NCBI GenBank assembly: GCA_016748015.1
Contig: JAAOMT010000523.1
Coordinates: forward strand, 1,552,358-1,616,357
Source: Geosiphon pyriformis
Lineage: Eukaryota; Glomeromycota; Glomeromycetes; Archaeosporales; Geosiphonaceae
DNA length: 64,000 nucleotides
Reading direction: 5' to 3'
Part shown: in pieces, positions 9,062 through 55,118 of the stretch
Layout: each line of letters begins with the position of its first letter
Numbering within the stretch: the first letter of the stretch is position 1
The notes under the pieces: model-generated
What the model saw: only the letters and a program-made list of their open reading frames with translations
Database searches by the model: none
Told to the model about the DNA's origin: nothing
Made by a program: the position numbers and the translations under genes

Positions 9062-10514
9062 ATGAAAAATTGTAATGGTCTTCAATCAAGGATCAAACTC
9101 ATCTTTCTTATTAGCTTTTTATGCTTTTGCTTTTCATATTTTCAATATATTCAAATCGTAAACGTTTCAAGGCTATCATGGAATATATGGAGTTCGGATT
9201 ATAAGAAAACTTCCCAAACTAAAGTTTCTATTCACTGGACTTCTCCTCAAAATGGCACTTTGTTAAGACAGGCAAATAATTTTGTTTGATTCAAGCAAAA
9301 ATTATCATTTTGTGAAAGTCCTTTAAATCTGAATTAATACTTCAAAAAAATTAAACTTATAAAAAGGTTAAAAAACGGCCAGAACACAAACGGAAAGACG
9401 AAGATATAAATGAACCTCAGATATTTAAAAACATTGATATGTTGAAGAAATTTCGTAAATATGCAAACTACGCTAATAAGGCTTATTGTGAGGATACTCA
9501 CCAATTCCCAGAAGTTATTTATGGTATCAAAAAATTTTGAATTTTTTGATAAAATTTTAAGATTAACATGCGAAGTTTATTTTGTATAGGGAATGCCAAA
9601 ATTGTCGATAATGAGATAATTTTCTTTATGCGAACTTTTGAAATGGCGAAATATCGTGAGATTTTTCACTATGCTCACGATAAAAGAAAGGTGACACTTT
9701 ATCCAGGTAAATTGAGCTTTTAATTGTAATTCTTTTGAGAATATTTTTATTAGTATGCTATATTTCTCTAATTTCTTCAAGGTTATGGGATCTCAACATA
9801 TTCCGAAAGGATCAAAGTGGATGAACAATATTGGCAAATTTACAAAGAGCGAGTTGCAAAAACACTTATTGAGTATCTCATAAATATTATAAATGAAAAT
9901 AAATTAAACTATCTTGTTATCACTGCACATCGATTAGCAGGAGGTAAGGTTAAAATTTTTTATTATTTGAATAGTGAAGTATTTTTAATATTTTTGGAAT
10001 TTTACCTTCGAGAAGTCTACGCCATATTTGTAGCATTAGACCTCAAAAAATTTGCCAGGTTCAGGCGCCTCCGAATAATAGTCTACACATGGGGTTCGCC
10101 ACGTATCGGGAATCTAGCTTTCGCCCGACATGTCAATCGAATATTGGTAACATACAGGTTTACCCTAAGAGATGATCAGATTTCACGATATCCCATCATC
10201 TCAGATGGCCAACGTCCAATCTCTTATATGCATTATCAAACTGAATATTGGACAACAAAGAATTGCGACTGTCAAAGTTGGAATCTTTATCGGTGTTTAG
10301 GAAGGTTACGAGCAAGTAGTTTTTATGAAGAAAATGAGGCAAGACAAAATTTTCTTTTGGTGATATTTTGGTTTTTTATGCTTTGCAACTTCTTGAAATT
10401 TCTGTTTCGTTTAAGCTATGCAATAAAGGAGAGGAACATAATCATAAGCATACATATACCTATGAGGGACCATATATGGGAGTCTACTTTGGAAACTGTT
10501 CATCTCAAAAATGA
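9062..10514 (+). CDS. Lipase-like secreted protein L1 lacking catalytic Ser and His
   Basis: Class 3 (Rhizomucor-type) lipase fold protein, probably without hydrolase activity. Exons: 9062-9271 (or 9283), 9367-9523, 9590-9706, 9782-9943, 10016-10338, 10416-10514; about 355 residues with consistent phases. The N-terminus has a hydrophobic signal/anchor (IFLISFLCFCFSYF). Later come FRKYANYANKAYC, the nucleophile elbow AHRLAGG (normally GHSLGG, so Ser is Arg), YTWGSPRIGN, the acid site RDDQISRYP, CDC, and the end THTYEGPYMGVYF-like block where the catalytic His aligns with Glu. The oxyanion FRG is also lost. The last intron starts GCAAGA, a GC-AG intron. Same strand as L2. Role unknown; the intact frame argues for selection. 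The plus-strand frame running on past 10338 is intron read-through. Confidence 0.75.
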
Positions 10515-10601
10515 ACATACATGTATAAATAAAACTCCTCCACTCTAATAATCATGTTATAAACCCAACAGAAATTTGAGATTTCAATGGTTAGGGATAG
10601 A

Positions 10602-10657
10602 TTTAGTGTGATGGTAAATCGTTTAAAATTCACAGTTTAATTAGCCATCACACTAAA
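10602..10657. repeat. Perfect 13-bp inverted repeat downstream of L1
   Basis: TTTAGTGTGATGG at 10602-10614 is repeated in inverted form at 10645-10657 with a 30-base spacer. It lies about 90 bases after the L1 stop and could form a stem in the 3' region, or be the ends of a tiny deleted element. Confidence 0.7.
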
Positions 10658-13600
10658 GCGTCATGGAATAAGATGTAAGTTGAAAAGATGTTTGTTATAT
10701 TTTCTTGACAATTGAACCAAACTTATTCTTTGATTTTAGAATTAATGGCTTTTGATTTTAAATAATGTTGTTAAAAAGTTTTATTTAAAATACACTAATT
10801 TGAATGTTCCCCTAACCTTTTTTAAATTTTAAGACTTTTTTTTAAAAAAAATTTGAATTCAAAAAATAAAAAGCTACTTTTCTATTTATTTGGTTTAAAT
10901 GTATTTAATTTCTTTTAAGCTAAGCATTTTGAAATTAATACTCAATGAAAAAATTTTGAATTATGAATTTTTTGCCATACTTTGAGGAATTTTGTATGAA
11001 CAAAAAATTCATTATCGTTTTCAGATTAAAATTTATATTTAAATTTCTAATTTTCTTTGTAGACAGAATTGAGATAGTTTTACATTAATTGTAAATTATT
11101 TGTTTTATTATTAATCAATTTTGAAAATGAATGGAGTTGAATAAATGGTTGATATCTATTTTCACTTTTCGTTTATAAACTATAATTCTGCAACAAATGA
11201 TAGTTTAACAATTTGTGATGTTAAAAAGTTTTTTTTTTAAAAAAATGTTTTATTTCATTTAAAAAGAAAGAACAATTTTATAAAGAAAAAACAACTAATC
11301 AGAAAATTTAATTTCAAATACCAAAAGAATTTTTTTTTGGAGATTGAGCATCTTTTTTTGAATTAAATTGACATTTAAGATGGGTTTATTTGCTAGGAAG
11401 TAGGTTTAAAATTTTTTTTGTTAAGATGAGAACAATTTTTTTCATTATAGTTGAAGTATTGAATCGTAAAATTTTCAGGTTTCTCCCTTTTAAGATTCGT
11501 TACTATAATCGCTATATTTGTCATGATATTGAGTTATGACCGAGTGGGTTTAAGGAACCAAATCAAGATCTTAAATATTCAATTGATTAAGCTCATAGCG
11601 AGACTGATTATAGGAATAATTTGATCATGCTAATTGCCTATACATTTTTTTATTATTGTAATCTTCTCCTTAAAATTTTCACCTTAAAGGTGATATGTAA
11701 ACATGGTTTTTTAGCGTTGGAAAAAGAATTTAAAAAAATAAATATTCAATACCTCCTCGGAATTAACATATTTTTATATATTCGGCTGTTTTTAGAATTT
11801 TTAAAGCATTTCCTGTAGAAGAGTTGACTTTCACCGAAAAGTAACTGTAATAGAATTAGTATATTTACCTAAAGGTAAGAAGTCGAAAAAAATTGAGAAT
11901 ATAAATACAGTTTGTGCAATTTGTGCAATTTATCAAATTATCTATTATATTTAGACAACTCTTTATAGATCCAATCGTGATTTGGACATTATAAATTTTA
12001 AAACTCTATAATGAGATTAATACTATTACTTCCACAATGAATTAAAAATAATATTCTCTCCTGTTGCTACTGTTTCTAATCCAATCTAACTAATTGTAAG
12101 ATATTGTCCGAGCATAGGTCACAACGATTCCTTTTTTTCTTTCATATTCCCTTGCCCCTTGAACTATTATTGTTTAACTATGAATAATCTCAGTAGCTAT
12201 ATTAACCAAAGATATTAAAGGAGTTTTTTATTGTCTTTTTTGCCTAAAAGAGTAATTCAAACAGATCTGTGAATAAGAGTTTCTTAAATGCGTTAAGCTG
12301 ATTCAAAAAAAAAATTGATTTATATTTATTACAAATTACAATAAGAAACTAAAAAATAATCAATGAATAATGTTAAATAATAAACTAAAAATGCTATTTT
12401 TACAAATAATAATAATCATAATAATAATAAAATAATTATTTTTCAAAGTGAAATATTTTTAATCCTAATTAATTATTTGAATATAATGTTTAAATGTTAC
12501 ATAATTGAAATATAATATAAATATATTAATTGCAATTCATAAGATATATTTGTGTGTTACATTATCATTTTTAATTTTAAAGTTTTATAATATCAAGAAA
12601 TGGGAAAATATTTTGAATGAGAAGGATTAATCAATTTCACAAAAAATTTTATAGATTTTTCAAGCTATTTTTTATAATGCAATCGATACAAAAATAGATG
12701 GGTAATTTCAATTATTTGTATACTTTCTTTGATGAATTAAAAATTCAAATTGGTCCAGTCAATATTTTGATAATACCGAGACTAAAAAATGTTAACTTTC
12801 TTTCGAAGAATTAGATATCTTGTACAATCAATATTTATATCTTGTATCATTCAGGAATGTACGTGAGATCTTTTTTTTTCGGAAATTTTTTAAGTTGTTA
12901 AATACATTTACTTTGTTAAATCTGGAACCCTTTAAAATTAATCTTTGAATGATATGAAAAAAAAAACCATTTAAAAACTGTAAATTGTTTCGTTTTAAAA
13001 GTTTAATATCCAGATCCATTCCTCAAAGTAAAATATGAAAATATTAAACGTAAAAATTAATTTATTTAAAGTAAAAAAAAGTAACATTTGGAATATTTTA
13101 TAAAGAATCATTTTATTCAGCTTTCATTTAGGTGGAAACACTCTTCAAAATTGCATTTTCGATCTTGTTAATTAACAAAAAAATCATTGATAAATATTTA
13201 TTAATTTAAAAGAAAATCATTTTAAATCAAAACTCATTAAACATTTCTTTCCTTTGGAAAAAATCTTCGATCTTGTTAATTTACAAAATAATTTTTAAAT
13301 AATTTTCGATCGATGACCAATACACCCTATGACTTTTGTTATAGAGCTGCCAATAAATTGTTTATCAAAGACATAAAAGTTATTAAACGCAAAGGCTCTT
13401 GATTTTAGTTGCCAAGTATTACAGATCTTTCCAAAATTATCTTAAGAAATAAATTTCTCACAGCTTTGGATCTTGGGAGATCCCCGGAAAAAAAGTACGA
13501 AACTTAATTAATTGCGTGAGGATTTTGATCCAAGTTCTGTTCAAAAAATATACTAGGGAAAAAACAAACATTCAGTCACTTAATACATAAATATTAATGT

Positions 13601-13679
13601 TGGATAGGTTAAAATTTGGCCATGGAAATTGAAAATATTGAAAAGTCACACACCTTTTTCGATCATTTAGTCAAGAATT
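10658..13679. other. Intergenic AT-rich spacer, no gene seen
   Basis: About 3 kb between L1 and L2 without a supportable frame. I see only homopolymers, short ATA/ATT tracts near 12400, and a direct repeat of about 14 bases (CGATCTTGTTAATT) at roughly 13160 and 13267. Confidence 0.5.
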
Positions 13680-15045
13680 ATGCTTTTTAACGTTGTTTTT
13701 GTCTTGTTCTTGTTAAAAAATTTATTACCTGTATCCAAGAAATTTAATGAAGCTGAAAATGTTGACATGATTCGAAAATATTCAATTTTGGAAACAAAAG
13801 AAGATGTTAATTTGACAAAACAGGAGATGCCAAGAATGAAAAGATTTTCTCAACATTTTAATATTGGAAACCAGCAAAATCAAATCTCGGCTCGTTCAAA
13901 AATAAATGTTCCGGTTGCCCCACAATTGAGTATGCACAAGTCTTCAATTAGAAGATATAGTAAATATGCTCAATACGCAAATCATGCTTATTGTTCTAAG
14001 GAGCTTGTAAATTTTTCAAGTTTAGTCTCAGGTAAAAGCTCATAGAATTCAATTCGATTAAATTAATCTTTTTATCAGATCGAAATCCTATTGGACATGA
14101 AAGAATTAGGGATCGTTTTGTCTTTTTTTACATTAAAATTTAGGTCAGATCGAAATGTCTTCTACCGAAGTCCTTATGTACTTCAAAGCACCAGAAATAA
14201 TTGGATCTAAGGAATGGACAATAAACCGTCAAAATACATTAGAAATTTATCCAGCTGTGATGTTTGGACCATTGAAAAATAAAATTAAAGTAGATTCAAG
14301 CTTCTATAAAATTTATTTGGAAGCAGCAGGTAACATAAGAAATTATTTCGAAAAAACATTTAGAAAACTGCCATCTTCTCAAAGATTTAGATTTACTGGA
14401 CATCGACTAGGTGGTGGTATGGAAACTTTATTTCACACTTAAAAAAGTTTTATAGATATTTCTCTCTCAATTTAAAAAATAACTATTTTTATTTTACTAG
14501 TAATAGCAATCTTTGCAGCCCTTGAAATTCAGAGGGGATATTTATCTAGAATAATTGCTGTTTATACTTTTGGTTCACCGCGTTTTGGTAATCGCGAATT
14601 TTCTCAGTATGTTCAGACCTTAAAACATCTTAATGTATATCGGTTTACTCTTCTCGACGATCAAGTTCCACGTTTTCCACGCTTAAAACATTCTTATCAG
14701 CAAGTTGAGACAGAATATTGGATCAAATCAAATTGTGATTGCCCTTTAAAACAATTTCCCTATGAGATCTATGAATGTAAGGGTCATCTTAATGAAGAAA
14801 GTCCGGTAAGTCAATTTTTGGAATTAATTTGAACTTATTCCTAATTTCTCGAGAACTCAATTAAAAATTAATGATTTTTTCAGTATTGTCTAAATTCACA
14901 AATAGATCATATTGACCCGAATTTTACGCACGATGGACCCTATATAAACGTTATCTTTAAAGATTGCACAGAACATAAGTTGCCAGAAGTAGAATTAAAT
15001 CAGTGTGAAATTCGTCATATAAATCCAAAAATGGATTGTCTTTGA
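13680..15045 (+). CDS. Lipase-like secreted protein L2 lacking catalytic Ser and His
   Basis: Paralogue of L1. Exons 13680-14031, 14144-14416, 14501-14805, 14884-15045; all phases agree, 363 residues. It opens with a signal peptide (MLFNVVFVLFLLKN...), then a polar linker, the YSKYAQYANHAYC block, and the core. The nucleophile elbow reads TGHRLGGG after splicing, with Arg (CGA) in place of Ser. YTFGSPRFGN and the acid site LDDQVPRFP follow, then CDC and an end block THDGPYINV in which Asp aligns with the catalytic His. It has one intron fewer than L1 in the middle of the domain. The C-terminus is longer and adds Cys residues. Probably secreted; substrate or partner unknown. Confidence 0.78.
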
Positions 15046-16317
15046 TGTCAAACCTTTCGTTCTGTTATTAGTAAACAACTTTGATCATTGACAAATAAGG
15101 ACATTTCTTTTGGGGCTTTGTTAAAATATTAAAATTACAAAACATTATTTTAAAAAAGATGAAATTTTTGAGTGACATCAATGATATTAACCGTTGGATT
15201 GAAAGCGACCAAATGAACTTTTTCTAGGTGGAGATTCAGAATGTTTTAAAGCCCATTCACGGTGATTTTATAATATGAAATTCAAGTTTTAATGATTCTT
15301 GAAAAATAATTTGGGTCAAATTTTGAGTTTTTAGCTAAAAGACGGTTTTTCATAAGCAACAATGAATTATTTTCACAACCACTTTTTTCTCGTTGTTTCG
15401 AAAAGAGTTTTTTTTTAGAAATTGTACGTGTACATGAGAATTTCTCGAAAATTCTAAATCAAAATAAAAAATATTTCAAAAAAGAATTGAAATAATGAAG
15501 CAAAAAAATTATTTTAACATTATTAAGCATTAAATAATTTATTAAATAGAAATTAATTTAATTAAAAAATATTTTATGCAATCCAATTTTGAAGAAATGA
15601 AATATTTATCATGATTTATCCCTTTAAGTCCCACGATAAGTGGCTTTTAGGTATGATCCACCAAAAACAGTGTTTTGGTTGCTTTTAAATTAAAAATTGC
15701 AACTTATTATTCAGCTAATTAATTTTCTTCATTTTAAATTGACTAGACAATAAATTGTTTGAGTATTTAAAAAAAGTTCAAAAGTCAAATTTGAAAAAAT
15801 AGCAAAACTTTAATAAGAATTAGTTTGTTATTGTTTTTTAATAAATTCATTATTATTTCTTGAAATTTATTTATTTATTTATTTTATAGCAATGTATTCT
15901 CATCAGAAATTGTCTTTAATAAATTAATTTTAAACAAGGAGAAAATATTTCTTGAAAAAAAAATCAAGTTAATTATTCAGTCTCACGAATAAAAGAAAAA
16001 GTGTTATATTTTATTAAAACCCACAGGTTCCTTAAAAATAATATTATTCTTTTCTTCATCAAAACTAAATAAAGACAAAAAAATTTATAAATTCACAGGG
16101 AATATAAGATCTTTCGAGACTTTTACATCCCTTCAAATGATTTCCAAGGCGCAAACACTTTTATGACGGCTTAATATTGGATCTCTGCTTGTCTTTTATC
16201 CTGTAAAGATTTGAGTAAAGTTTTAGTTTAACTTCAAAGTAATTAAGTATTATTTTGTTCAAATAAAGTTTGATTTCTAACTTTTTTTCAGAGTTCATAT
16301 ATAAATCTATTCTTTTG
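15046..16317. other. Intergenic between L2 and L3
   Basis: AT-rich spacer between converging genes, with a short TTTA repeat near 15868. No gene seen. Confidence 0.5.
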
Positions 16318-17759
16318 CTATTCCCAAATTTCATTGCACTCCCTAAATCTAATCCCAAAATAAGGACCTCGACTTGAATATCCTTGTTTCAGATTTTGAA
16401 TTTCTTCGAATGAATCAGGGAGCCCATATTTATTAATACAATGCTATTTAAATAATAAATTAATATTTTAAAAATTTTTAAAAAATATTGCTCTTTGAGA
16501 CTTTATTTAAGAGCTTACCTCACTCTCTATGTAGAATTGATTTGCATTCCCATCTATCAAATGATCACACTGCCAAACATCATATTTTTCTAATTCGGGA
16601 CAATCACACTTTAATTCCAACCAGATTTCAGTTTTCGAATGAGTAAATCCAAGATTTTGTGGTGGTAATCTCGGTATGGGGTCATCCATTAAAGTGATTC
16701 GATACATGCCGTTTAATGCTCGATGAACATATCTTGCAAATCTCGCATCCCCAATTCTTGGAGATCCATAGGTGAATAAAAATATCCTTTTTTGTGTAAA
16801 ACTTTTTCGCAATTCCAGGGCTGTTAAAATTGCAAAGACTGCAAATAATATTAATGTATTAATCAAAAATTTTAAGCAAAGGGATTTAATTTCGAGAAAA
16901 AGAGTATACCAACCTCCAGCCATGTTGTAACCTGTAATTTGTAAAACTTTATTCCCAGCAAAAACATTAAACAAGATATTTGTCAAATATTCAATAATTT
17001 TTTTGGATGCACTTGAAAATAGTGTCCAAAAAGTTTTATGCAGTGATATTATTTTTTTTTTACTGGAAATGGGATCCTGGTTTTGTGTAGCAGTGAAATT
17101 TGACTTCTTAGAATGTCACCAGTTTAACTGAAAATTTTTGAAAAAGTTCCTTACCATTACGGAATAATCAACAAATGTATTTAAATCGGGAGCTAGTAAA
17201 TCCTGAGATTGGAGAGTTTCCGAAACTCCCAAGTAAAATATAATTTCGTTATCAAAAATTTCTGCTTTTCCTTTTTAAAAAATAATTCAAAATTTTTTTT
17301 TTGATATTTTCTTCAATTAATTCCAGAAATTTATTTTAGCTAAAAAAAATTTGAACTATTACCCCAAACATCATCTGAAAATCGAATTAATCCTTGTTCC
17401 TCGCTAATACAATAAGGCTTATTCGCGTACTTGGCATAATTTTGAAAACCTGATTGGATAACTAAATTTTCTATTTTTATTGGGATATCGCCAGATTGAT
17501 TGTCTGAACGAGGACTAAAAATTGCTTTTTTATTAGTGAAGTTGCCGGCTTTTTGAAATATTATTAATGAAAAAGTTAAATTTGAATTTTGCGGGCTGAT
17601 TACTGAAATATTATTATTTACATTTGAGCTTTTTAAAAAATATAATAATAAAATGGTAGATTTCAAAAATAAAGACGTAAAAACTAAAAAAAAGCTCGAG
17701 ACACAATATTGGCTCATCAATATTTTGTTAATTTTTATCGAAATGTTGAAAATTTGCAT
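16318..17759 (-). CDS. Lipase-like secreted protein L3 lacking catalytic Ser and His
   Basis: Third member of the family, on the opposite strand and converging with L2. Exons (minus): 17759-17363, 17270-17155, 17076-16914, 16838-16519, 16443-16318; 373 residues, or 359 from the second Met at 17717, which starts directly before the hydrophobic signal segment and is my preferred start. Motifs: YAKYANKPYC, the oxyanion region IIFYLGVSET (FRG lost), elbow TGYNMAGG with Asn in place of Ser, YGSPRIGD, acid site MDDPIPRLPP, KCDC, and the last block SSRGPYFGI with Arg at the His position. Intron positions around the elbow and before the last exon match the other members, which supports the model. This copy differs from the other three in having Asn, not Arg, at the nucleophile site. 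Confidence 0.75.
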
Positions 17760-19363
17760 TTTTTATAATTATTTTAAAGTGTCACAATTTTACGGGTTAA
17801 AATACCTGATACCGGAAGTATTTTTATCAAACATCGGAATACCTAGCTCATGGAAAACAGATACAGTGTATACCAATAATATAAATATTATCATAAATAA
17901 TAAGTAAACCAAGATCTATACAATAAAAAGTATAGATTGTCAATTGAATCGGCGAGATCAGGTCACAATTATCATCACGTTATTAGGATTTTCTGGAATG
18001 GCACTTTTTGCAACGAAATGTAACTATACATTAATAAAAAAACAAAATTTTACAAATACAATGTCGTCTAGTTTGTCAAAATTTCTTAAACTTGAACCGG
18101 TTCAATTTCTTGCCTTCGTGTTTTCAAAGATGACAGAGTTCAATAAAAGCAAGGAAGAACACAGGACGTATAAAAAATGTCTTGAAGTCCCAATCGGCGA
18201 AAACTTGACATGAATTCAAATATAAAACGTAAGTATGAACTGCCAATGTTTTGTTCTTTTCTGCAGAAGCTATATAAAGTGCACATAGAATTTTGCTGTT
18301 GCATTATCTTTAGAAGCACTAGTCATGCACGTGTTTAGCATGGTATTAAATTGAGAGGTCTTGAATAATAGTGGCACTCTCTTTCTGGACGTAAAAACTT
18401 TTTCAAGTCTTAATGTAAGCACTATTTTATAAACTGATAGTACCATTGGTTAAATATTCATTTTTTTATATTATTTTATTGTTTAAGAGATTAGATTAAG
18501 AAATATTGCAGAGGGAAGGCATTTAATTCATTAAAAAAATGTTTATATAAATTAATAAAAGAATTAGAAAACTTTTTAGTAAGTTATATTGTTTATAAAT
18601 TTTACTGTATGCTAATTGGTATATAAATACCTTTTTTAAAAAAATAGTTTGTTTGCTTATTTTTTGGTCAATTCTTATAATTTATCAATATAAAGAAATA
18701 AATTTTATTTTTTGGATGTTTTCACAAAGTGTAGTCCAACAACTATCTACGCACATGTACCAAGAAATATTACATAGTAGATGTAGCTCACGCGCTTTCT
18801 ACGTGTGACCAGCCACCTTTATTATTTTGTGAGTATTTTTTAGAATAAAATAACATTTGAATATTTTTTATAATGAGATATTAATCTAGTTTAATTAATA
18901 TTTTTTGCTTAAAAATATTTTTTCTATAAATTAACTTTGTTTCTAATTGTTTTTATTTCCATATTTTTAAAATTTAAAAAATATACATATTACTAAGTGC
19001 TATAATAATTATAAAGAGAACCTTGTTTTTTTAAGGTTTTGACATAATGTAAATTCGTCGCATTATTAATTTTTTTGTAAAAAAATTAAACATATAAATT
19101 TTATTTTTATTTATTTCGGTGTTTACAAAAGTTTTTAACTTAATGCATTTGAAACCAAAGAAAAGATTACAAAAATGTTGAAATTTTTTTTTAAGCTATT
19201 CAAATTTCAACTTGTAATAGCATGTATTAATTAAAAATATTCAAAATCATGTTTAAAAAAACAAATCATTAGAAATATTTTGTTTTTAAAACTGATTTCA
19301 TAAAAAAATTCCCTTGTCAGGTTAAACAAACTACAACTAAAATCTAAAATCTTGCATCGTAAA
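17760..19363. other. Intergenic, no gene I can support
   Basis: Upstream region of L3 and AT-rich spacer. A less AT-rich open frame at 17944-18213 (+, 89 codons, hydrophobic near its start) is not recognised and has no supporting splice or family evidence. A TATAAA lies near 18274 without an obvious gene after it. Confidence 0.4.
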
Positions 19364-20020
19364 CCTTGGCTCAAAAATCAATTTATAATCTAAAGGTTTA
19401 CAATCAAAATCATGTCCGCATAATGTATCGATATCAAGGTCTATGGGCTTTCCAGTTATGGGATCTTTTTCTAATCGGAGGGTGAACATTGACATAGTGT
19501 AACTAACAAAAGTAAATAAGTTATGATAGGCTAGGTTCATTCCAGGACAGGATCGACGACCACGCCCAAAGATCTAAAATTTAATATTAAAGTTTTAAAA
19601 ATGATATCAAATAATATTTAGTTAAAAGAATATAAAAACCTACTCAAAAATCATGATGCTCATCTAAACTATTCAGGTGCCCCTTCTCATCTAAAAACCT
19701 TTCCGGATAGAAAACTTCAGGATTCTCATATAACAATGGATTCATATTGATAGAAAAGATATTCAACAGTGATGATAGATTTCGCCGGGATGTGGTATCC
19801 ACGATAGATATCATCTTCCCTACAACAATGAGGTATGAGAATTTGTATTGAGGGCCTGAAATAATTCGAAACTAGAAACATAGGTTATCTCACTAAACGA
19901 TTCCAATACAAAAAATTCCAATTACCAACATGAAACGTAAACTATCTTTTATTGTCGCTTGTAAATAATGTAAATCCTGTTTATGCTCCATCTTATACAA
20001 TTTTCCTTTGCCAACCACTA
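19364..20020 (-). pseudogene. P450-3: truncated 3'-end copy of a P450
   Basis: The minus strand carries only the last part of a P450: the end of exon 3, exon 4 and exon 5. It is almost identical to 57.1-57.75 kb, introns included, so the copy is recent. It is broken in three ways. Homology ends abruptly near 20020, before the I-helix and all upstream exons. In exon 4 the Trp codon before the donor is TGA, giving a stop. A one-base insertion in the same exon (GTTGAATATC against GTTAACATC) shifts the frame. The haem loop FGRGRRSCPG survives in the exon 5 remnant, and the C-terminus runs into unrelated sequence at 19363. Confidence 0.85.
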
Positions 20021-21038
20021 AGACACAGTATGTATAGTTTCTTTAATTAACGAGTCTGTACCTAAAGACTTAGAAATGGTGCTGCCAGTTTCTTCATTAA
20101 TAATTATATGAAAAGAAATGATGAATTTTGGTGAATATGTTATTTTATATATATATCCAAAAAAGTATTGAAAACCTGCTTAAGAATTAAACTTGTTGAA
20201 AAATTCCAAAGATATACACATTAATTAAATCATGTTCTTTGAAAGCTTTTTTTATCTTTCAGCAATGTCTTGACAAATAATAAAAATAATATTTATATTC
20301 GAATAGTCTTTTACTAATAGCAAAATTTGCATAAGTGTAACAATGATACTGTGTAAAAAAATTCGTCTCAAAAGAACCAATCGAAGTTTATTTAATAAAT
20401 GAATAACCAAATGAATTCATTTAATTTTATGACTACCAATGTTTTTCTTTTAGATTTGAAAGAAGTTACAAAAAGTTATCAACAATCAAATTAAAGATTT
20501 GCAAAGTAAACTTTAAAAAAAGTAATTTTTTAAAATCCCGAAAATAATAAAAGGGAGCTATGATATCGTCATACTCACAATAAATCGAGATTTGAAATTA
20601 TCAAGGTTTCAATGTTAAATAAAAAAGGAAAAAAATAATTTTTTGCTCTTTAAGATTTTGTAACAATCAAAAATCAGGAGCGCATATAAACAGTTACACT
20701 TGAAAAAAAAGAATTTTTAATTTCTCATTTAGCTTTGATGCTGACTTTTGTTTGGCTTCTTGTAGTTAGTTACATACTGTAATTTTTTTAAACTAATACT
20801 CTTCAGTTTTTAAATTCTAATACTGCTTAAAATTAATTTTGTTTTAGGTTTAGAAAGTTCCTTAGTAAAAACTATGCAGAAGCAAAAATGTTATGAAACC
20901 ATTGAATTCGAACTTTGTATACAGTATTAATGAAGAAGAGCTAGTTTTAATTCGTATTCTCAAAATAAAAAACTTGAAAATTTAAAGTTAGAGTTTAACC
21001 AAGTACTCTACATTTTTCGAATTTCAATTCAATTAGTT
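20021..21038. other. Intergenic, upstream of P450-2
   Basis: AT-rich DNA between the truncated P450-3 and P450-2; nothing recognised. Confidence 0.5.
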
Positions 21039-21046
21039 TATAAAAG
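21039..21046 (+). promoter_or_regulatory. TATA box of P450-2
   Basis: TATAAAAG about 70 bases upstream of the start codon, followed by the ATGCAAATTTTA leader shared with the other P450 copies. Confidence 0.55.
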
Positions 21047-21115
21047 AAAATAAAGGCCGTTTTCGGAATGCAAATTTTACTCTTCAAAAATTAAACCCTA
21101 GTAGTAACCCTTAAG

Positions 21116-23073
21116 ATGGCTATTCTTGTTAATACTCTCTTATTACCTGTGCTCTTATTAACTATTTTTTGGTTATGGAATTTCTTTCAAAAAAAAGTTT
21201 TCCAACAAAGACCAAAGGGAACTTTAGAAATCCCAGGCCCAATTCCATTACCTATCATCGGTAATATGCATCAACTTGGTACAATAATGTATCCTAATAT
21301 AACGAAAATGTCAAAAAAATATGGCCCACTATTTAAAGTTAATATTGGAGCACTCACTTGGATTGTAGTTACTGACCGCGAAATTGCCAAAGATCTTCTT
21401 GTTGACAGAGGAACGAATTATTCGAGCAGACCAGTAAGATTAATCAAGATAAATAAATGAATTTAAAATTTAAACATATCATTCAAAATTATATAATTTT
21501 AATATTTTATTTAGGGGTTTGGCCTTTTAACTGAGGTTATTTTGAAAAAGAACAAAAGTGTGGCACATGCACCGGTAAGGATAAACTTATAAAATAATTT
21601 AAACTATCAGCTAAATTTCCAGCTATGAAAAAATAATATCAATAATGCTTGAATAAATTTTCTAAAGAATAATAATTGGTGGAAAACTATGCGTTCAATC
21701 GAAGCTCAAGAACTACGGCAACCCGTTATTGACACGGTCTATTCCGCAATGATTTCAGAAGAAGTAAAAAAATTCCTTTTGGATCAATATTCGAACTCTC
21801 TGGGTTTTATAGCCGTGAATCCAGCACCGGACATTCGAACTGCTTTTACAACAATATTAGCTATAATTGTCTTTGGTCGGACAGCTTTAGATTCAGATAT
21901 TATAAGAAAATATATTCTCCTTATAGATGCATTCTGGAAATTTTCCAATATCAAAGGAAGTCTATTAAATGTTTTTCCGTGGCTTCAATATTTTGGATTA
22001 AGAAAATTCTTAGCAGCAGAAGCTACCAATATTCGTGCTGAAGCTGAAGAAATTAATGAGAAACTTATAAACCGAGTCAAAGAAAGATTACTTGCTCATG
22101 GAGAGGATAGTGAGAACTGTTTGATTGCCAACGTTATAAAATCCGTTACAGTTGATCCTAACTTTATTGCCGACTCAACCACACATCAATTTGAGAAAGA
22201 TCAAGATGGAAAGTATATTTTTGATCGATATGATCTCATGACTGTTTGTATCGACATGATGGTTGGTGGTACTAGAACTACTATTAGCAGTTTAATATGG
22301 CTATATGCCCTTTTAGCAAAATTTCCTAGTGTACAAAAAAAGATTCAAGATGAATTAAATTTGGTAGTTGGCAAAGGAAAATTTTACAACATGGATCATA
22401 AGCAGCATTTACATTATTTACATGCAACTATAAAAGAAAGTTTACGTTTCAGGTTTGTAATTGGAATTTTTTGTATTGCAATCGTTAAATGGATTTTGTT
22501 TAGTAGCATTAGTATATATTTTTAATTTTAAATTATTTTAGGAACTCGCTACGATTCCTCCTACCTCATGGTAGTATTGAAGAAGATATATATCGTGGAT
22601 ACCACATCCCGGCAAAATCTACCATTCTTATTAGCACCTTTTCCATCAATATGGATCCATTGTTATATGAAAATCCTGAGAATTTCTGTCCGGAAAGATT
22701 TTTAGATGAGAAGGGACATTTAAAAAATTCAGACGAGTATCGTGAGAATTGGGTAAGTTTCTAATTCTCTTAGCCGAACGTTGTATTATTTTTTAAGGTC
22801 TAATATTTAAACATTATTAAATTTTAGATCTTTGGGCGTGGTCGTCGATCCTGTCCTGGAATGAACCTAGCCTATCATGAATTATTTACTTTTGCTAGTT
22901 ATACTATGTCAATGTTCACCCTTCAATTAGAAAAAGATCCCATAACTGGAAAGTCTATCGATCTTGATATCAATGCAGTATGCGGAAATGACCTTGATTG
23001 TAAACCTTTAGATTATAAATTGATTTTTAAGCCAAGGGAGGAGGTTGATGTGCTTTCGGCACTGAATTTTTGA
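21116..23073 (+). CDS. Cytochrome P450 (P450-2), five exons, intact
   Basis: ER-anchored haem-thiolate monooxygenase, the best-preserved copy on the plus strand. Exons 21116-21433, 21515-21574, 21668-22452, 22542-22752, 22828-23073; each length equals that of the matching P450-1 exon and the total is 539 residues. Motifs: membrane anchor (residues 1-25), PGPIPLPIIGN hinge, C-helix WKTMR, I-helix GGTRTT, ESLR (ExxR), PERF, and haem loop FGRGRRSCPG. All splice borders are GT-AG. In the I-helix motif (usually AGx(D/E)T) the acidic residue is Arg, a feature that differs from Lys in P450-1 and Thr in the minus-strand copies. Substrate unknown. Confidence 0.9.
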
Positions 23074-24540
23074 ATATTTGTTCGAATGCAAAATTTCGAT
23101 TTAAGTTTTTATTTAACGAAAAAGGGATTAATTTTACAAAATATATCATTTTTAATAATCAAATGTTTCTAATTATTTCTTTTTAATAGATATTTATTAT
23201 GGCCTTTTCCTTTGCTTTATTGTATGTTCTTTTCCGTAAACTTGAATTTTGAGTAATTTGATGATTTCACCAACTGACAGAATTTGGACTAAGAACAAAA
23301 ACAAACAAGATTCACAATAGATAAAGTAGAATTAATTGGAAAGATAATTAACTGGAAGAATAGTTAATAATCCTGTTGAAAAAGATGGTTGAAAATCACA
23401 ATTAGTAAAAGATGATTTAGATTATGTTCACTGTATCTTTTAAAAATTTTATATCCTTCTCTGCGTTATATATATATATATATATATATATTACATATTA
23501 CTATTACTTTAACTCGTAGTGTGATCATTTTTTTAAAAAAAAAGACATAATAATAAGTGGTATATATTTCACAAAAAAATATTTTATGTCTAATTTATTT
23601 TTGGAAATGGTTTTGTTTGTGCAGTCTTTATTAATTTTGATGTTTGTACACTTTTTAAATGGTACTTTTTAACAAAAAATGTAAGTAAGATTGGTCAAGA
23701 TTTTATTAAACATATAATTATAATTTACAGAGTTAATAGCATTTTTTTCAAGATGTAAAAATAAAAAGCTCAGTAATCTAATAGCAATTTTTGGGATGTG
23801 ACAAAAAATTATGCATCTTCAAAGTAACTTCACCGGAAGTCAATTTTAATAGTTTTTTAATTTTTTCTTTTGTAATGGCAGACATGATGAATTACAAAAT
23901 AAGAAAAATTGCGTATTCATCTGTGTAAAAATAAAGAATGCAAAGTTTATTGCATGCATTGTGGATCCTTTATCAAAAATGAAGAAATTGTGTCAACAAA
24001 TAAACGAAAATTTAAGCGAATAACTTGTTTAAATGTGTAACTACCTAAAAGTCTATGAAAATTATTTGAACCGGAAAAACTTTAGCCTTGACGAGTATTT
24101 GTTGACTTTTAAAGAATTTCGGCGTTTGAACACATTTTTATTGATGCATGAATAGGCAGACTCTAAAATAATGAGAATTTTGAAGAGTAATAATGTTTAT
24201 ACTAAAAAATAGTGAGATAATTGAAGCTTCTCAAAAGGTAAAAAAAAATATAAAAATGGATAGTTCAACATATCTTTTAAATGAGAGATCGTTGTCTCTT
24301 CCTTTTAAACAATCTATTTCCTTTGAGATATAATTTGGGACGGGAAATTCCATCACCCAAGAGGAGCTAAAAATAGAGATATTCTTTAATCTGGAAAGGG
24401 AAACATTGTATTATCTCAATGCCTTGGTAGAAATCCTTATTTTTGAATTATAGACATAATCACAATATCAAATAGTGTTGATCGTTCCGTACCTCGGTAA
24501 ATCAAGAACTTCCTTTTGGAGAATGTCACGACATCTGGTT
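23074..24540. other. Intergenic, one (TA)n run
   Basis: No supportable gene. Holds an uninterrupted (TA)n microsatellite at about 23467-23491. Confidence 0.5.
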
Positions 24541-25290
24541 CAGATGGGAGATGTCAATGAGAGATGTCGCGTGGCTCTTGCGAAAATTGATAACGCGAAC
24601 ATCGGCTGGTTCCATATTCTTGCTTGTTTAATAGCAGGAATTTGGGATTTTTTACTGATGCATGCAATTAATATTGTTTCAGCCATGATTGGTTATGTAT
24701 ACTTTGCTCATGAAAATAATGTTGATTATTGTTGGAGCCTTGTACTTGCCATCGGAGCAGTTACTGCTATGATTGCTCTTTACTTTCGTCTTACAATCCC
24801 GGAATCACCTCGTTATGTCATGAATGTCGAAAAAAACATTGAACAGGCAACTCATAATGTCGATCAAGTTTTAAATAATTCTTATAATCCCGGAAATACG
24901 AATTATATTTCAGCGGTTGAACAGATTCATGGGTTCAAAGATTTTTGTGACCATTTCAGTAAATGGGAAAATAGTTTCGATATTTTAATTACTGCTAAAC
25001 TACGATTTGATTTGAATCACTCGCAAGTTTTTTCAAAACTTTGGTCCAAATACAACAACATTTATAATACCTGGCGAAGTTTTTCCAACCAGATATCGTT
25101 CCACATGACATGGGATCTCAGCTGCTTCCGGAAAACTGAGTGCAATGGTCACTCAAATTTGGTTTTCACAACTTAAAGATATCTGTGGTTCAAGCTCATT
25201 TGTACCTTATTTATTGCAAATCTTTGCATTGTTCATGTTCATCGAATTACTGGTTACTACCCTAATACCTGAAACCAAGGGAAGAATTTT
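24541..25290 (+). pseudogene. PHO84-type phosphate:H+ symporter relic
   Basis: Fragments of a major-facilitator phosphate transporter of the PHO84 class, which imports inorganic phosphate with protons at the plasma membrane. The first part reads IDNANIGWFHILACLIAG, typical of the start of the first helix; it then jumps to SAMIGYVYF and on to IGAVTAMIALYFRLTIPESPRY, so helices between are missing. After FKDFCDHFSKWEN most of the second half is gone. The late [11 protein letters not shown] block is in another frame, has a TGA directly after RST, and continues HGISAASGKL...QLKDICG...IPETKG. Internal deletions, a frame change and an in-frame stop together make this a clear pseudogene. Family identity is secure. 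Confidence 0.85.
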
Positions 25291-27585
25291 CGTAAATTTC
25301 TATTATTTAAATTATCGATTGTCTTTGGCATGTACTGAGTACATTGTCCAAATTCAGACGAGAAAGAACATTTCCGGCTTTCTAACTCAGTATTCCATTG
25401 AAACTCCAAAAATTTCCAAGTCTTTGATAGGCTCCTAATGTTTAATTATTCGTTTTATTTAATTACTTTACTTATATTAAGAGCGACTGAGATATAAAGA
25501 GAGATTTAGAGATAAAACTATTGATACATGATAATTTTTACGAGAGAGAGAGAGATTAGAAAAGAGATTACATATCATTAATAGTTTTTTTTTAATTTAG
25601 TCTTTAGAGTAGTGAGAAATAACAGAGATAGCGAAATTGAGCTCAGGAGAATTCGAAGAGAGGTAGAAGTAGAGACGAAATCTTTGCTGGCTGAGATTTT
25701 GGAACCAATATATCATAAACAGATTAAAAGACAGCATTAGGCACTGAATGTAATTTGAAAATTCTTTGAGAGAGAGAAATTTTTGAATTATTTTTAGAGT
25801 ACTAGTTGGATTTTGATTTATTTCTTCGTCTTTTTTTCAATTTTTTTCTTTATAAATAATAAATGTTACCAAAAATCAATTATTTTCATTATTATTATTA
25901 TTTTTGCTGTTGTTAAAATGAAATTTATTTTATAAATCTTAACAAACTAGAATAAAGTTCCTATGCTCTTTATCTAAGATTCATATTCATTAAAAATAGA
26001 ATTTTCAGGATTAAAATAGTTCTCGAACCAACCAAAATCTCAATTATAATTTGGATGATAAAAACAAAATGTAAAGAAAGTTAATTTTGAAAGAAAATAT
26101 GATTTGGTGCGTAATGCTTTGAAATTTGATTTTTTTAAAGCATTTAAAAAAAATTTCGAAACAATCGATATTATATTTCCTGAAAATTAGGATTTCATGA
26201 TTTAAAATTATGAAAAAACTTAATTAGGCCTAGCCAAAAAATATGACATTTAATACTATAGATAACAGGTTAAATAAATTCTATAATACCAAATACGTGT
26301 ATTTGGTTTTATAGAATTAAAATATTTTCCCGGAAAACCTCGCTTCGAGATTTTTCATCAGGTCCATAAAATTGAACAAAAATTGAGCAATTTCTAAAAT
26401 ATTAATTTCAAAATATTCTTTGGTTCCAAATTATTTATTTTATATTTTATCGAAAAAGCAAGGAATTTACGTGATTCTGAAAATGTTTTCCATACATAAA
26501 GCTTAAATATTCTAAGCCATTTCATATAGCTCTTTCAATTCATGATCTTTTTATTTCAATTAGATGTATACATTCAAACCTAACATACATATTCAAATAT
26601 TTTTAGAAGTGAATTGGCAGACCTAAATATCTGGTTATAGACCTTAAAAAATATTTACAGTTTGCAATAAAAGAATAATACCTTAAGAAAGTTTTAAGAA
26701 ATATTCGTTCATTATCTAAGAATTGTAGGGTCAAAAGTTGACAAAGGGTTTTCCCCAAAATTTCTTAAAACTCAAAGAATCATTTGCTGGCACTTATTCA
26801 ATAAGTAATTAAAATTGATTCAAATATTCTGATATCCATCAAAACAGATGGTTGTTTGTTTCATTTTTCTGAAGTTTTCTACAATTTTTGTGATCATTGC
26901 TATACCTCTTTCCTTTGGCCTTTTAACAATGCTACTCCAATTATTGACAATAATTGCAACCATATTTATTGACAATTAAGCGACCATATATATTGCGATA
27001 TAAAATACTTTCCAAATTTTACTCAAATACTAACAGAGATATTCACTATCTTGATCACATGAAGAAATGTTTCATAAAGTATATTTATATTTGGCAGCCC
27101 GGACGCAAATACCCACGTGATTTTGGTCTACCAATTGCTGAAATATTATAAACAGGGTTACACTAATAAAGATCCCGATCCCACATAGGTTACTATTTTA
27201 GGCATAGAATGAGCTTTTGTCTTAAGGCGTCATTATCATTTCGGATATCAAATATATTTTCCTTCATGAAACCAGAATCAAACACTAATACGGGCCCTTC
27301 TTTTAAAAATTTGGTTCACAATTGATTGATTGAATGAATGAATGAATGAATGAATATGTCCATATCTAATTAAAATGTACTATCAAATGCTTAGATTATG
27401 AGTTTAAAGATAATAATGCACTTAGATAAGCTTTAAAATTAAATATTCGAAAAAAAACATAAAATCCCAAGTCTAAAATAAAATTATTGAAAACAGCTAA
27501 AAAAATTTTGAAATTTTATTTTCCAGTGGAATATACATAAAGAAAGATCATTCAGAAAAGAAACAAAAACTAAATAATATCAATA

Positions 27586-27625
<40 letters not shown>

Positions 27626-28463
27626 AAATAAGATCAAAAAACATGTATATACTTATATTTAAATTGCATTAGGATCTATACATAAGCTGGAGAAAAAGAA
27701 AAGCATAAACAAAAAGCCATTTTTATTTCTTATAGCTATAAATACAAGTAATTTAAAATTTTACAAAAATGTTAAGAAATTATCAATATATTAATTTAAG
27801 CTCACGTTACTTTTAATAATATAGACTAGAATTTTAACAAACTAATTCATAATTAGTATTTTTCGAAAATTTTTCTAGTTTAAATTACACATATATTAAA
27901 AAACCTTTGGTTAAAAATACCATCTTAAAATTTGTTGTTTTTCGCTCATTCGGTTCCAATATGTTTGTTTTAAGCTCTCATCTTTATTTAATTATTACCG
28001 TAAATTGATGCTTGATGTATACGAGTATTTTTAAAATCCATTTTCGTACCTCGAGTTACGGACTCTGTATTGATGGGGAGTATATTCCGTGAGTTGTGTC
28101 CAAAAAACTACTAGAATTTTTATTTTTATATCAGGCTATTCCCCCACTATATAGGCTACAACTCTTTGAATTATAATATGTGGAGTACCCGGTCATGAAT
28201 CAAATTTTTAGATCTAGAAATTAATAAAGGATATAAATCATAAGAAGGTCTAGAAGTCAGCAATCTATGGTATTTATTTATTTATTTATTTTTTATTTAC
28301 TTTCATTGATTATAGATTCAAATATTACTTCATGCATATCAACTAATCTTTATCCGACCTTAAGAGAAATTAAAAACATCAAGGATACAAATATATATAG
28401 TATTTAAGTTAACGAAACTTTTGGAAACCCTTTTAAACCGTTTCAATGATTGAAATCTGAGAA
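25291..28463. other. Intergenic, simple repeats, no gene seen
   Basis: About 3.2 kb without a supportable gene. Simple repeats: a GAGA-rich tract near 25540, (TGAA)n at 27321-27355 and (TTA)n at about 27587-27624. The 65-codon frame at 26954 shows nothing recognisable. Confidence 0.5.
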
Positions 28464-30094
28464 ATGAAACCAAGTTTTTATTCGAAAAAATATTTTACCA
28501 TTGTTCTACCATATCATAATCTTATACAACGAACACAAATTTCGTTTAGATTTTTAAATCTTTTTTTGAAAAAATCCATCGTACTTGTACTTTTGCTGCT
28601 TTTTTGGACTTATATTATAAAGAAAATTGATAATAATAATTTGGAGAGATGGCAACAATTTCTAGGGAAGGAATCCAAAAGTGATAAAGAGGTTGACGAT
28701 TTAAGAAGTCGAGACTTGGATCGAAAGATTCGAATTGTATCATCAAAAAATTATTCCATGACAAGAGAATTAAAATTCTCGGCCCATGACAGAATCAAAC
28801 AAAATTATTTGGACTCAAAGAAAATAAACACTAGAGGTATTAATTAAATTTAAAATAGATAAAGATTCATTTTGAAATTAATTCACTGTTACTACTATTA
28901 TTATTATTATTATTATTATTAACTCTTTGTGTTTTTAACAGCTATATTGGAAATTAGTGAAAAACCTATAAGAATCACCGAACCTTTAATCTTGGCGCAA
29001 TTCACTAGAATTGCAATCGTTACAAACAAAGCCTTTTGTGAAGCAAAATCAATGTTGGCTTTTGAAAATGGAATTAGAAGTAAACTTTTTGAAATTTTTT
29101 TGAAACATTATTATTTCGCTACCTATAAAAATGGTATAATAACTCTTTAAAATTTCAGTGCAGGTGGAAATAACGAAAGATGAGTTCATATTTTATTTTG
29201 GCGTCAATCAGGATAGTAGCATTACATTATGGGGTATTAATCGACCGAAAAAACTTTCTATATATCCCGATATCAGGTATATTTTTCCAGATTTTTGAAA
29301 AATATGGATACTTCTCCTTAAATGCTAATAAATTGTTTCTTAACAATTATTTATCAAGTCAAAGAGAAGATAAGTTTAGATTAAAAGTTGACAAAATTTT
29401 TTGGAATGCTTGGTTAAAAATAAAGGATAAAGTTAAAGCATTTGTGGTTCAGACTATGGGGAATGACAGAAAACGATCGATAATTTTCACGGGACATCGA
29501 TTTGCTGGAGGTTTGAATTAATTTTCATTATTGATATCTTTTATTTTTTTGAAAAGGAATATTCTAAAATTGTGAATCTCTCAAATTCTCTAAAAACTAT
29601 TCAAAAGTATATGCGATTTTCACAGCATTGCAAATCAAAAGAAAAAAATGGTCAAGAAAAGTTTTTGCATATACATGGGGTACACCACGTTTTGGTGAAA
29701 TCAATTTTTCAAGACATGTGGATAACATTTTATTTGCTTACCGGTTTACCTTACTGGACGATCAATATCCAAGAGAACCATCACACCATTTAGGCTATAA
29801 CCATCATCAAATTGAATATTGGATAAAATCGGAATGTGATTGTGACAAGCATGACGTTTATCAATGTCTTGCTTTGCCGTACAATCCTAATTATTATGAA
29901 AATAGTGTGCGTATTTTTTATTTTTTTTCAAAAGATTATTATTATTATTATTATTATTATTGGAACTCGTCTATTTTTTTTCAAATAATATTGCTTTCTC
30001 ATTTTAGCTGTGCAACAATGCTCAAGTCATTCACAGCCCAGATTATACATATAATGGTCCTTATTTTGGAATATATTTTGGACAAGAATGTTAG
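28464..30094 (+). CDS. Lipase-like protein L4 lacking catalytic Ser and His
   Basis: Fourth family member. Exons 28464-28836, 28942-29079, 29159-29276, 29359-29510, 29608-29906, 30008-30094; phases agree and give 388 residues. The N-terminus has a cytosolic-type basic stretch and then a strong hydrophobic helix (SIVLVLLLLFWTYII, about residues 38-53), so it is a signal anchor or late signal peptide. Core motifs: TNKAFC, FIFYFGVNQD at the oxyanion loop, elbow TGHRFAGG (Ser replaced by Arg), YTWGTPRFGE, acid site LDDQYPREP, CDCD, and the end TYNGPYFGIYF with Asn at the His position. The donor of intron 5 is GTGCGT and that intron has a (TTA)n tract. Frames continuing beyond 29906 are intron read-through. 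Confidence 0.76.
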
Positions 30095-35130: not shown

Positions 35131-35286
35131 TAGATCTGCAGAAATGTTAAAGGAACCTTTTTCTTAACAGGTTGCTATATTATTCTTGTGCTCGTTGTGG
35201 TTTAAATTTGCTTTAATCCCACCAGTTTTCTTATTTGATTATGGTCAAAGCCCTCTAGCTTTTTTTTATCCTAGCAAATTTTAACG

Positions 35287-35766
35287 ATGGGTTTTTGGGA
35301 AGTAGTGAAGTTCGGTGGCAGAGTAGTAATAGTAGGAACAGCAGGGGCAGTAATCGTTTCCACTGGGGGATTGGCTGCTCCTATAATCGGTGTTGGCGTT
35401 TATGCGGGCGGCAAAGCAGTTAAAAAAATAGGAGAAAAATGTGATTGTGGATTTATTGAAGAAGTTGGGGATTTCGTTGAAGACGTGGGTCTCGATGGTC
35501 TAACTGGTGGGTTACTCAATGCTGGAACCCAAACGGCGGTCAGGCTAACAGCACGGGGGATTGCTCGTCATGGTCGTAGAATAATTAAAGGTGCCAAACT
35601 TTTAATCAAGATTGGTCAAACAATAAAGATAGGAAGCAAAGTGTATAGAGTTTGTAACGATAATTTAGACGAAATTGAACGCGTGGTTAGATATTATCAC
35701 GGTCATCACAAAGGTGAGGGAAGAAGCTATGACAGTGATTGTCCCATCTGCCAAAAAGATATCTAA
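35287..35766 (+). CDS. Glycine-rich small protein A with CPxC tail
   Basis: A 159-residue protein of no family I can name. The first 45 residues are hydrophobic and rich in Gly and Ala with small-xxx-small spacing (GTAGAVIVSTGGLAAPIIGV), resembling a glycine-zipper membrane segment. A CDC motif follows, then an acidic EEVGDFVEDVGLDGLTGG stretch, a basic region (RGIARHGRRIIKGAK), and a His/Cys-rich end (HGHHKGEG ... CPIC). The tail could bind metal. No signal peptide of the usual type. It faces the P450 on the other strand. A close paralogue at 55119 lacks the His/Cys tail because of a 22-base deletion, which suggests this copy shows the older form. Function unknown. Confidence 0.7.
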   Translation: MGFWEVVKFGGRVVIVGTAGAVIVSTGGLAAPIIGVGVYAGGKAVKKIGEKCDCGFIEEVGDFVEDVGLDGLTGGLLNAGTQTAVRLTARGIARHGRRIIKGAKLLIKIGQTIKIGSKVYRVCNDNLDEIERVVRYYHGHHKGEGRSYDSDCPICQKDI

Positions 35767-54939: not shown

Positions 54940-55118
54940 AGAAAAGTTAAAGACACCTTTTTCTTACAGGTTTGTTTCTTATGAAATAAAGTAAGTTTGC
55001 TATATTATTCTTGTGCTCGTTGTGTTTTAAATTTGTTTTAATCCCACCAGTTTTCTTATTTGGTTATAGTCAAAGCCCTCTAGCAATCTTTTTATCCTAG
55101 CAAATTTTAACGATAACG

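What the first reader, a model, noticed from the sequence alone, without database searches (positions are those of the whole stretch)
9062..30094. Four intact class-3-lipase-like genes that all lack the nucleophile Ser and catalytic His
After splicing, L1, L2, L3 and L4 each give one unbroken frame (355, 363, about 359-373 and 388 residues). At the nucleophile elbow the family GHSLGG reads AHRLAGG, GHRLGGG, GYNMAGG and GHRFAGG. At the position of the catalytic His the residues are Glu, Asp, Arg and Asn. The acidic triad member is kept (xDDxxPR), as are an early Cys, a CDC motif and an N-terminal signal or anchor. Loss of the same two residues by different substitutions in four intact genes argues for a maintained family of secreted pseudoenzymes, perhaps lipid- or glycan-binding proteins or effectors, not decay.
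Basis: partly seen in the sequence, partly recalled or inferred. Interest (0 to 1): 0.88.

Follow-up and report, generated by a model that had tools for sequence, protein, structure and literature searches.

The report
Four dead-lipase genes, one giant family
Four neighbouring fungal genes look like secreted fat-cutting enzymes that have lost the cutting residue; they are close kin and part of a very large family in the same genome, much of which lost it too, so they probably bind something rather than cut it.

Summary
The four genes are real: each splices to one open frame with a Lipase_3 match well over the Pfam cut-off, and the nucleophile Ser is replaced by Arg, Arg, Asn and Arg. Three corrections. 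(3) They are not four independent losses: with two other genes they form one clade (support 100/99).

The larger finding lies outside the window. Four searches list Lipase_3-like matches at about 315 separate places in this genome. Of 90 gene models with a readable elbow, 24 keep Ser and 53 have Gly; Asp is kept in 90 of 90. GHGxGG elbow DNA outnumbers GHSxGG (AGY) 319 to 41 (reversed-pattern controls 21 and 3). Only 5 of 82 models carry a full canonical catalytic set. Most likely these are maintained, fast-changing, secreted or anchored non-catalytic binding proteins of a probably fatty-acid-auxotrophic, Glomeromycotina-like fungus. The ligand is untested.

The parts
9062..10514 (+). Gene L1: exons 9062-9283, 9367-9523, 9590-9706, 9782-9943, 10016-10338 (GC donor), 10416-10514; 359 aa
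   Evidence: Lipase_3 48.8 bits
9931..9933 (+). L1 nucleophile column: Arg CGA (AHRLAG-V)
10461..10463 (+). L1 catalytic-His column: Tyr TAT (TYEGPYMG)
13680..15045 (+). Gene L2: exons 13680-14031, 14144-14416, 14501-14805, 14884-15045; 363 aa
   Evidence: last exon end by arithmetic on the 363 aa; Lipase_3 79.8 bits
14404..14406 (+). L2 nucleophile column: Arg CGA (GHRLGG-V)
14929..14931 (+). L2 catalytic-His column: His CAC is KEPT (THDGPYIN)
16318..17759 (-). Gene L3: exons 17759-17363, 17270-17161 (or -17155), 17076 (or 17103)-16914, 16838-16519, 16443-16318; 371 or 382 aa
   Evidence: Lipase_3 64.4 bits on the 382 aa model
16924..16926 (-). L3 nucleophile column: Asn AAC (GYNMAG-V)
16372..16374 (-). 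L3 catalytic-His column: Ser AGT (SSRGPYFG)
28464..30094 (+). Gene L4: exons 28464-28836, 28942-29079, 29159-29276, 29380-29510, 29608-29906, 30008-30094 (profile model, 381 aa by exon arithmetic; another third intron gives 401 aa)
   Evidence: Lipase_3 51.2 bits on the 401 aa model
29498..29500 (+). L4 nucleophile column: Arg CGA (GHRFAG-V)
30050..30052 (+). L4 catalytic-His column: Tyr TAT (TYNGPYFG)

Best explanation
L1-L4 belong to one Arg-elbow clade inside a very large, genome-dispersed and partly clustered family with the class-3 lipase (alpha/beta-hydrolase) fold. Shown by sequence: Ser is replaced, the oxyanion FRG[S/T] motif is gone, the Asp and the family's Cys columns are kept, and His is lost in three of four. 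They therefore should not work as serine esterases. Inferred: they are secreted or membrane-anchored binding proteins whose acyl pocket holds a lipid or another ligand without cutting it, or that bind a partner protein. The conserved core keeps the fold while variable columns diversify quickly. A few Ser-Asp-His paralogues (L004, L005, L007, L008, L010) remain as the probable real lipases. One type I fatty-acid-synthase domain model finds nothing in this genome, so lipid capture is the most natural use, but no ligand or localisation was tested.
For: Ser column: 53 Gly, 24 Ser, 7 Arg, 2 Asn, 2 Ala, 1 Cys, 1 Asp of 90. Asp in 90 of 90 with a readable elbow; Cys columns 47/50, 57/59, 56/60, 63/65, 62/65, 60/60 in Ser-less models. 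No Ser or His is invariant in the 7 Arg-clade models, so no alternative Ser-His pair is conserved. Fold: family profile matches R. miehei lipase 1tgl at 4.9e-39. Full canonical set with an oxyanion S/T in 5 of 82 models. In a quick tree rooted on four viral relatives the canonical Ser genes branch nearest the root (SH-aLRT 81-89 only). Elbow DNA in the whole genome: GHG 319, GHS (AGY) 41, GHR 9; reversed-pattern controls 21, 3, 0. FAS domain PF08354 gives no match while the C. glutamicum control rings.
Against: Most Gly-elbow models keep His as well as Asp (47 of 53), which could mean another chemistry rather than none. Ser genes also sit among Ser-less groups (11 changes on the tree), so the history is not one clean loss. 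The youngest Arg-clade pair has dN/dS 0.96 and the L070 pair 0.80. Signal or anchor rests on hydropathy only. Of the first 100 GHG sites, 52 have no listed family match within 700 bases (the match lists are capped). A second FAS model, PF18314, gave no match, but its control did not ring either, so it says nothing. No expression, localisation, ligand or structure data.
Confidence: 0.55

Rival explanations
1. The family keeps an unorthodox catalytic role: with Gly at the elbow, the Asp-His pair acts as a general base on a bound substrate or water, as in alpha/beta-hydrolase lyases and cofactor-free oxygenases (recalled). L1, L3 and L4 would then be a further dead branch.
For: Gly with His is the commonest combination: 47 of 87 models with both columns readable; Gly uses all four codons, so it looks old and kept.
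Against: The Arg clade has His in only 2 of 7 models, and the residue at the oxyanion position is scattered in Gly-type models.
Confidence: 0.2
2. Decay: a burst of duplication left many copies drifting to pseudogenes.
For: dN/dS 0.96 and 0.80 in two young pairs; strong copy-number expansion; some listed matches carry stops, part of them introns read through.
Against: 1 of 89 models has a stop; 1 of 35 conserved columns differs in the youngest pair against 67 of 165 variable ones; Asp in 90 of 90; other pairs with finite estimates show dN/dS 0.14-0.54.
Confidence: 0.12
3. Arg/Tyr switch: Arg for Ser and Tyr for His turn the esterase site into a carboxylate-holding site for free fatty acids, like the Arg-Tyr pair of fatty-acid-binding proteins (recalled).
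For: Among 87 models with both columns, Tyr at the His column occurs in 5 of 7 Arg-elbow models and 0 of 80 others; L021_1m, outside the clade in the quick tree, has Arg by another codon (AGG) and Tyr too. The Fisher p 5.7e-7 ignores kinship.
Against: The retained Asp would neutralise the Arg; L2 and L077 have Arg with His, and L3 has Asn with Ser; L021_1m is a partial model (165 aa, cut at the locus end) and its place has no starred support.
Confidence: 0.13

Closest known systems
Fungal class-3 lipases (Rhizomucor miehei lipase 1tgl, Thermomyces lanuginosus lipase 1dt3)
   Same: Fold, elbow position, catalytic Asp, early Cys and, in 1tgl, the C-terminal YFG..C region; family-profile E 4.9e-39 and 2.1e-38
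   Different: Ser replaced by Arg/Asn; oxyanion FRG[S/T] lost; His lost in L1, L3, L4; extra Cys (CDC) and a one-residue insertion before PYFG
EDS1 / PAD4 / SAG101 (plant lipase-like immune proteins)
   Same: Class-3 lipase-fold proteins used for non-enzymatic roles (recalled); family-profile matches from 3.6e-12 to 1e-5
   Different: Pfam finds no second domain after the lipase domain in L1-L4; intron-rich fungal genes with conserved Cys columns
Lipase_3 expansion in Entomophthora muscae (PMC11105155, passages seen)
   Same: Hundreds of Lipase_3 genes in one fungal genome (348 reported there)
   Different: Discussed there as enzymes that likely metabolise host tissue; the passages seen say nothing on the nucleophile
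Lipase counts in Glomeromycotina (PMC12574304, passages seen)
   Same: Mean 189 lipases per Glomeromycotina genome and no cytosolic FAS found
   Different: Counted as lipases; the passages seen do not examine the catalytic residues

Membership tests
Pfam Lipase_3 (PF01764) homologue | Score over the curated cut-off (22 bits) | tested here: met
   48.8, 79.8, 64.4, 51.2 bits
Active class-3 serine lipase | Nucleophile Ser in GHSxGG | tested here: not met
   Arg, Arg, Asn, Arg
Active class-3 serine lipase | Catalytic Asp | tested here: met
   all four; 90 of 90 models with a readable elbow
Active class-3 serine lipase | Catalytic His | tested here: not met
   Tyr, His, Ser, Tyr: met in L2 only
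Active class-3 serine lipase | Oxyanion motif FRG[S/T] (recalled; FRGS seen in 1tgl and 37cb) | tested here: not met
   L1 FMRTFE, L2 YFKAPE, L3 YLGVSE, L4 YFGVNQ
Secreted or anchored pseudoenzyme | N-terminal signal or anchor | tested here: inconclusive
   Kyte-Doolittle 19-residue peaks 1.76, 1.93, 2.02, 2.04 starting at residues 14, 1, 24, 34; no signal-peptide predictor run
Secreted or anchored pseudoenzyme | No catalytic activity | not testable with these tools
   needs an assay
EDS1 family | Lipase domain followed by an EP domain (recalled) | tested here: not met
   Only Lipase_3, plus a weak overlapping Mbeg1-like match in L2, found by Pfam in L1-L4

The most novel reading that the evidence does not exclude
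A fungus that appears unable to make its own fatty acids has turned most of a 300-plus-locus class-3 'lipase' family into a diversified repertoire of nucleophile-less extracellular binding proteins for lipid capture or host recognition; in the window's clade an Arg-Tyr replacement of Ser-His makes a carboxylate-binding site, so the esterase pocket became a fatty-acid carrier.
Probability: 0.17. Interest if true: 0.87.

Novelty: new variant of a known kind. Interest (0 to 1): 0.63.

Why it matters
Genome papers count such genes as lipases. If most class-3 'lipases' of a fatty-acid-auxotrophic symbiont cannot cut esters, those counts mislead, and a large set of candidate lipid-binding or recognition proteins has gone unexamined. 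How these fungi take up plant lipid outside the cell is an open question (recalled), and this family gives a concrete set of proteins to test. I found no paper describing a nucleophile-less class-3 lipase family in these fungi in ten full-text searches of an open-access library; I saw their listings and passages of five papers. Most papers of subscription journals are not in it.

Tried and rejected
An artefact of my splice models is unlikely, because elbow DNA patterns counted without any gene model give the same order. Cautions on those counts: the Ser pattern covers AGY codons only (24 of 24 Ser codons in the models are AGY) and may include other hydrolase families; variants such as GHGxGA, GFG, AHR and GYN are not counted; of the first 100 of 319 GHG sites 48 lie within 700 bases of a listed Lipase_3-like match, as do 25 of 41 GHS and 8 of 9 GHR sites. 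Inside fetched loci 34 of 36 GHG, 18 of 18 GHS and 5 of 5 GHR sites fall in a modelled gene, but those loci were chosen for Lipase_3 matches. Twelve of twelve viral-contig relatives keep GHS.

Limits. They came in contig order. With 8 loci and 8 this makes 80 loci, some overlapping each other or the window. Rows dropped: one duplicate protein (90 to 89); the tree used the 81 of 89 models of 200 aa or more with a readable elbow and no stop; the tree used 91 of 92. dN/dS was computed only for pairs over 42% identical in the profile rows. Ranking by PF01764 may favour canonical genes. Fold prediction was not run: the tool takes proteins that the window's DNA gives letter for letter, which spliced proteins are not. 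The PF18314 search was uninformative. Organism identity is probable only: the AML1/AML2 primer sites (recalled) lie 800 bases apart with one mismatch each in an SSU gene, and PF08354 is not found. Against it, there is a single Hint match, whereas PMC8778642 (passages) reports a huge Hint-domain expansion in Glomeromycotina.
Full report
What was checked. The window is contig C346:1552358-1616357 of a 124.7 Mb, 406-contig genome; its 2-kb bins run from 19 to 34% G+C. All four give open frames with consistent intron phases: a phase-1 intron after the early Cys region, a phase-1 intron right after the elbow, and a phase-0 intron before the last exon; L1 uses a GC donor for the last one. L3 and L4 have uncertain introns in the region between, which change the length by 11 and 20 residues and none of the conclusions.

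Elbow and His. The elbow intron splits a Val codon, so the readings are TAHRLAG-VYAIF, TGHRLGG-VIAIF, TGYNMAG-VFAIL and TGHRFAG-VYAIF. The Ser column holds Arg CGA, Arg CGA, Asn AAC, Arg CGA. A profile of 14 family members, L1-L4 among them, aligned to solved structures places R. miehei lipase H257 (numbering recalled; LDHL-SYFG) opposite the family's H in tHdGPYfG. That column is H in 70 of 88 models and reads Tyr, His, Ser, Tyr in L1-L4. L2 keeps both His and Asp and lacks Ser.

The family. PF01764 has 163 matches in the genome, with 748 first-look candidates of which 150 were scored. The listed matches of four searches fall in 315-319 separate places on 109 contigs, by the grouping distance used. 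From 80 own-genome loci, some overlapping, and the window I have 92 distinct gene models (89, 3 added). Of 90 with a readable elbow: Gly 53, Ser 24, Arg 7, Asn 2, Ala 2, Cys 1, Asp 1. Asp is kept in all 90. Six Cys columns are kept in 93-100% of Ser-less models that reach the column. One of 89 models has a stop. All 24 Ser codons are AGY, while Gly uses GGA 22, GGT 14, GGG 8, GGC 6 and one unread, so Gly is not a fresh one-step loss in many lines. A count of elbow DNA, with no gene model, gives GHGxGG 319 against a reversed-pattern control of 21, GHSxGG with AGY 41 against 3, and the Arg pattern GGNCAYCGNNTNGSNGGNG 9 against 0. Not every site is a proven family gene: 48 of the first 100 GHG sites, 25 of 41 GHS and 8 of 9 GHR sites lie beside a listed match. 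A canonical set of oxyanion S/T, Ser, Asp and His is present in 5 of 82 models, all in one clade.

Phylogeny. In a maximum-likelihood tree of 81 models, with the Ser and His columns left out, L1-L4 and two tandem genes on C204 form one clade (100/99). Ser against not-Ser needs 11 changes on that tree, and Ser genes sit among Ser-less groups. A quicker tree of 95 rows rooted on four viral relatives puts the canonical Ser genes nearest the root and adds L077 (C366) and L029 (C214) to the Arg clade (98); 42 of its 92 inner branches are under 80. Pattern matches suggest three more Arg-elbow genes at C353, C368 and C204:467838, two of them beside listed family matches. Tyr at the His column occurs in 5 of 7 Arg-elbow models and 0 of 80 others; kinship is not corrected for, though L021_1m, a partial model, reaches Arg by a different codon and sits outside the clade in that tree without starred support.

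Selection. Nei-Gojobori pairs: of 21 pairs among 7 Arg-clade models only three have dS under 1, none with a window gene: 0.47, 0.51 and, for the youngest (dS 0.15), 0.96 with a Fisher p of 0.89. The remaining 18 are near or past saturation (pS 0.68-0.76); for the 14 of them where a ratio can be computed it lies between 0.19 and 0.40. Elsewhere the seven pairs with dS under 0.7 give 0.33, 0.41, 0.48, 0.49, 0.52, 0.54 and 0.80, and a canonical Ser pair 0.14 (dS 2.40). In the youngest Arg pair 1 of 35 conserved, 2 of 42 middling and 67 of 165 variable columns differ. So the core is held and the variable columns change freely; relaxed constraint and diversifying selection on them cannot be told apart here.

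What it is. Sequence shows members of the class-3 lipase fold (family profile to 1tgl 4.9e-39, to feruloyl esterase A 1.3e-33, to EDS1-type proteins 3.6e-12 to 1e-5) without a serine nucleophile and, in the window clade, without the oxyanion motif or an alternative invariant Ser or His. The most likely function is binding, of lipid or of a partner. The fungus is probably Glomeromycotina-like: AT-rich window, a type I FAS domain (PF08354) not found while its control rings, AMF primer sites (recalled) in an SSU gene; the single Hint match does not show the expansion reported for that group (PMC8778642, passages). Passages of PMC12574304 state that Glomeromycotina lack cytosolic fatty acid synthase and carry a mean of 189 lipases. 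A role in lipid capture is inference from these facts, not shown.

Verdict.

Noticed in passing
L093 (own genome C320:1045481-1046280): SSU rRNA gene copy with C-to-T and G-to-A changes at sites I recall as universally conserved (530 loop reads GCCAGCAGCCACGG), like a CpG-deaminated rDNA pseudogene; it was the only place found with the two primer patterns at up to two mismatches.
   Followed up: partly
L003 model (own genome C301:185138-188329, elbow GHCVGG ... HHNGPYLG): One paralogue has Cys in place of the nucleophile Ser, with Asp and His kept: a possible cysteine hydrolase.
   Followed up: no
L070 (own genome C401:1479480-1485132): Two inverted copies of a Gly-elbow gene, 87% identical in protein, dN/dS 0.80.
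   Followed up: partly
window 36888-37685 (-) and 57632-58495 (-): Two frames identical over the visible part of the first, which runs into masked N; they resemble the P450 frame at 21653-22525 that Pfam confirms, and so does 2190-3053.
   Followed up: no
window 35275-35766 (+) and 55101-55604 (+): Two similar small proteins (VVKFGGRVV.VGTAGAVIV); no Pfam match for the one scanned, 35275-35766.
   Followed up: no
window 47646-48419 (-): 257 aa frame with a hydrophobic start and several Cys, no Pfam match.
   Followed up: no
window 9944-10015 (+) and 16913-16839 (-): The elbow introns of L1 and L3 are 72 and 75 bases, multiples of three without a stop in frame, so intron retention would insert 24-25 residues at the former active site.
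   Followed up: no
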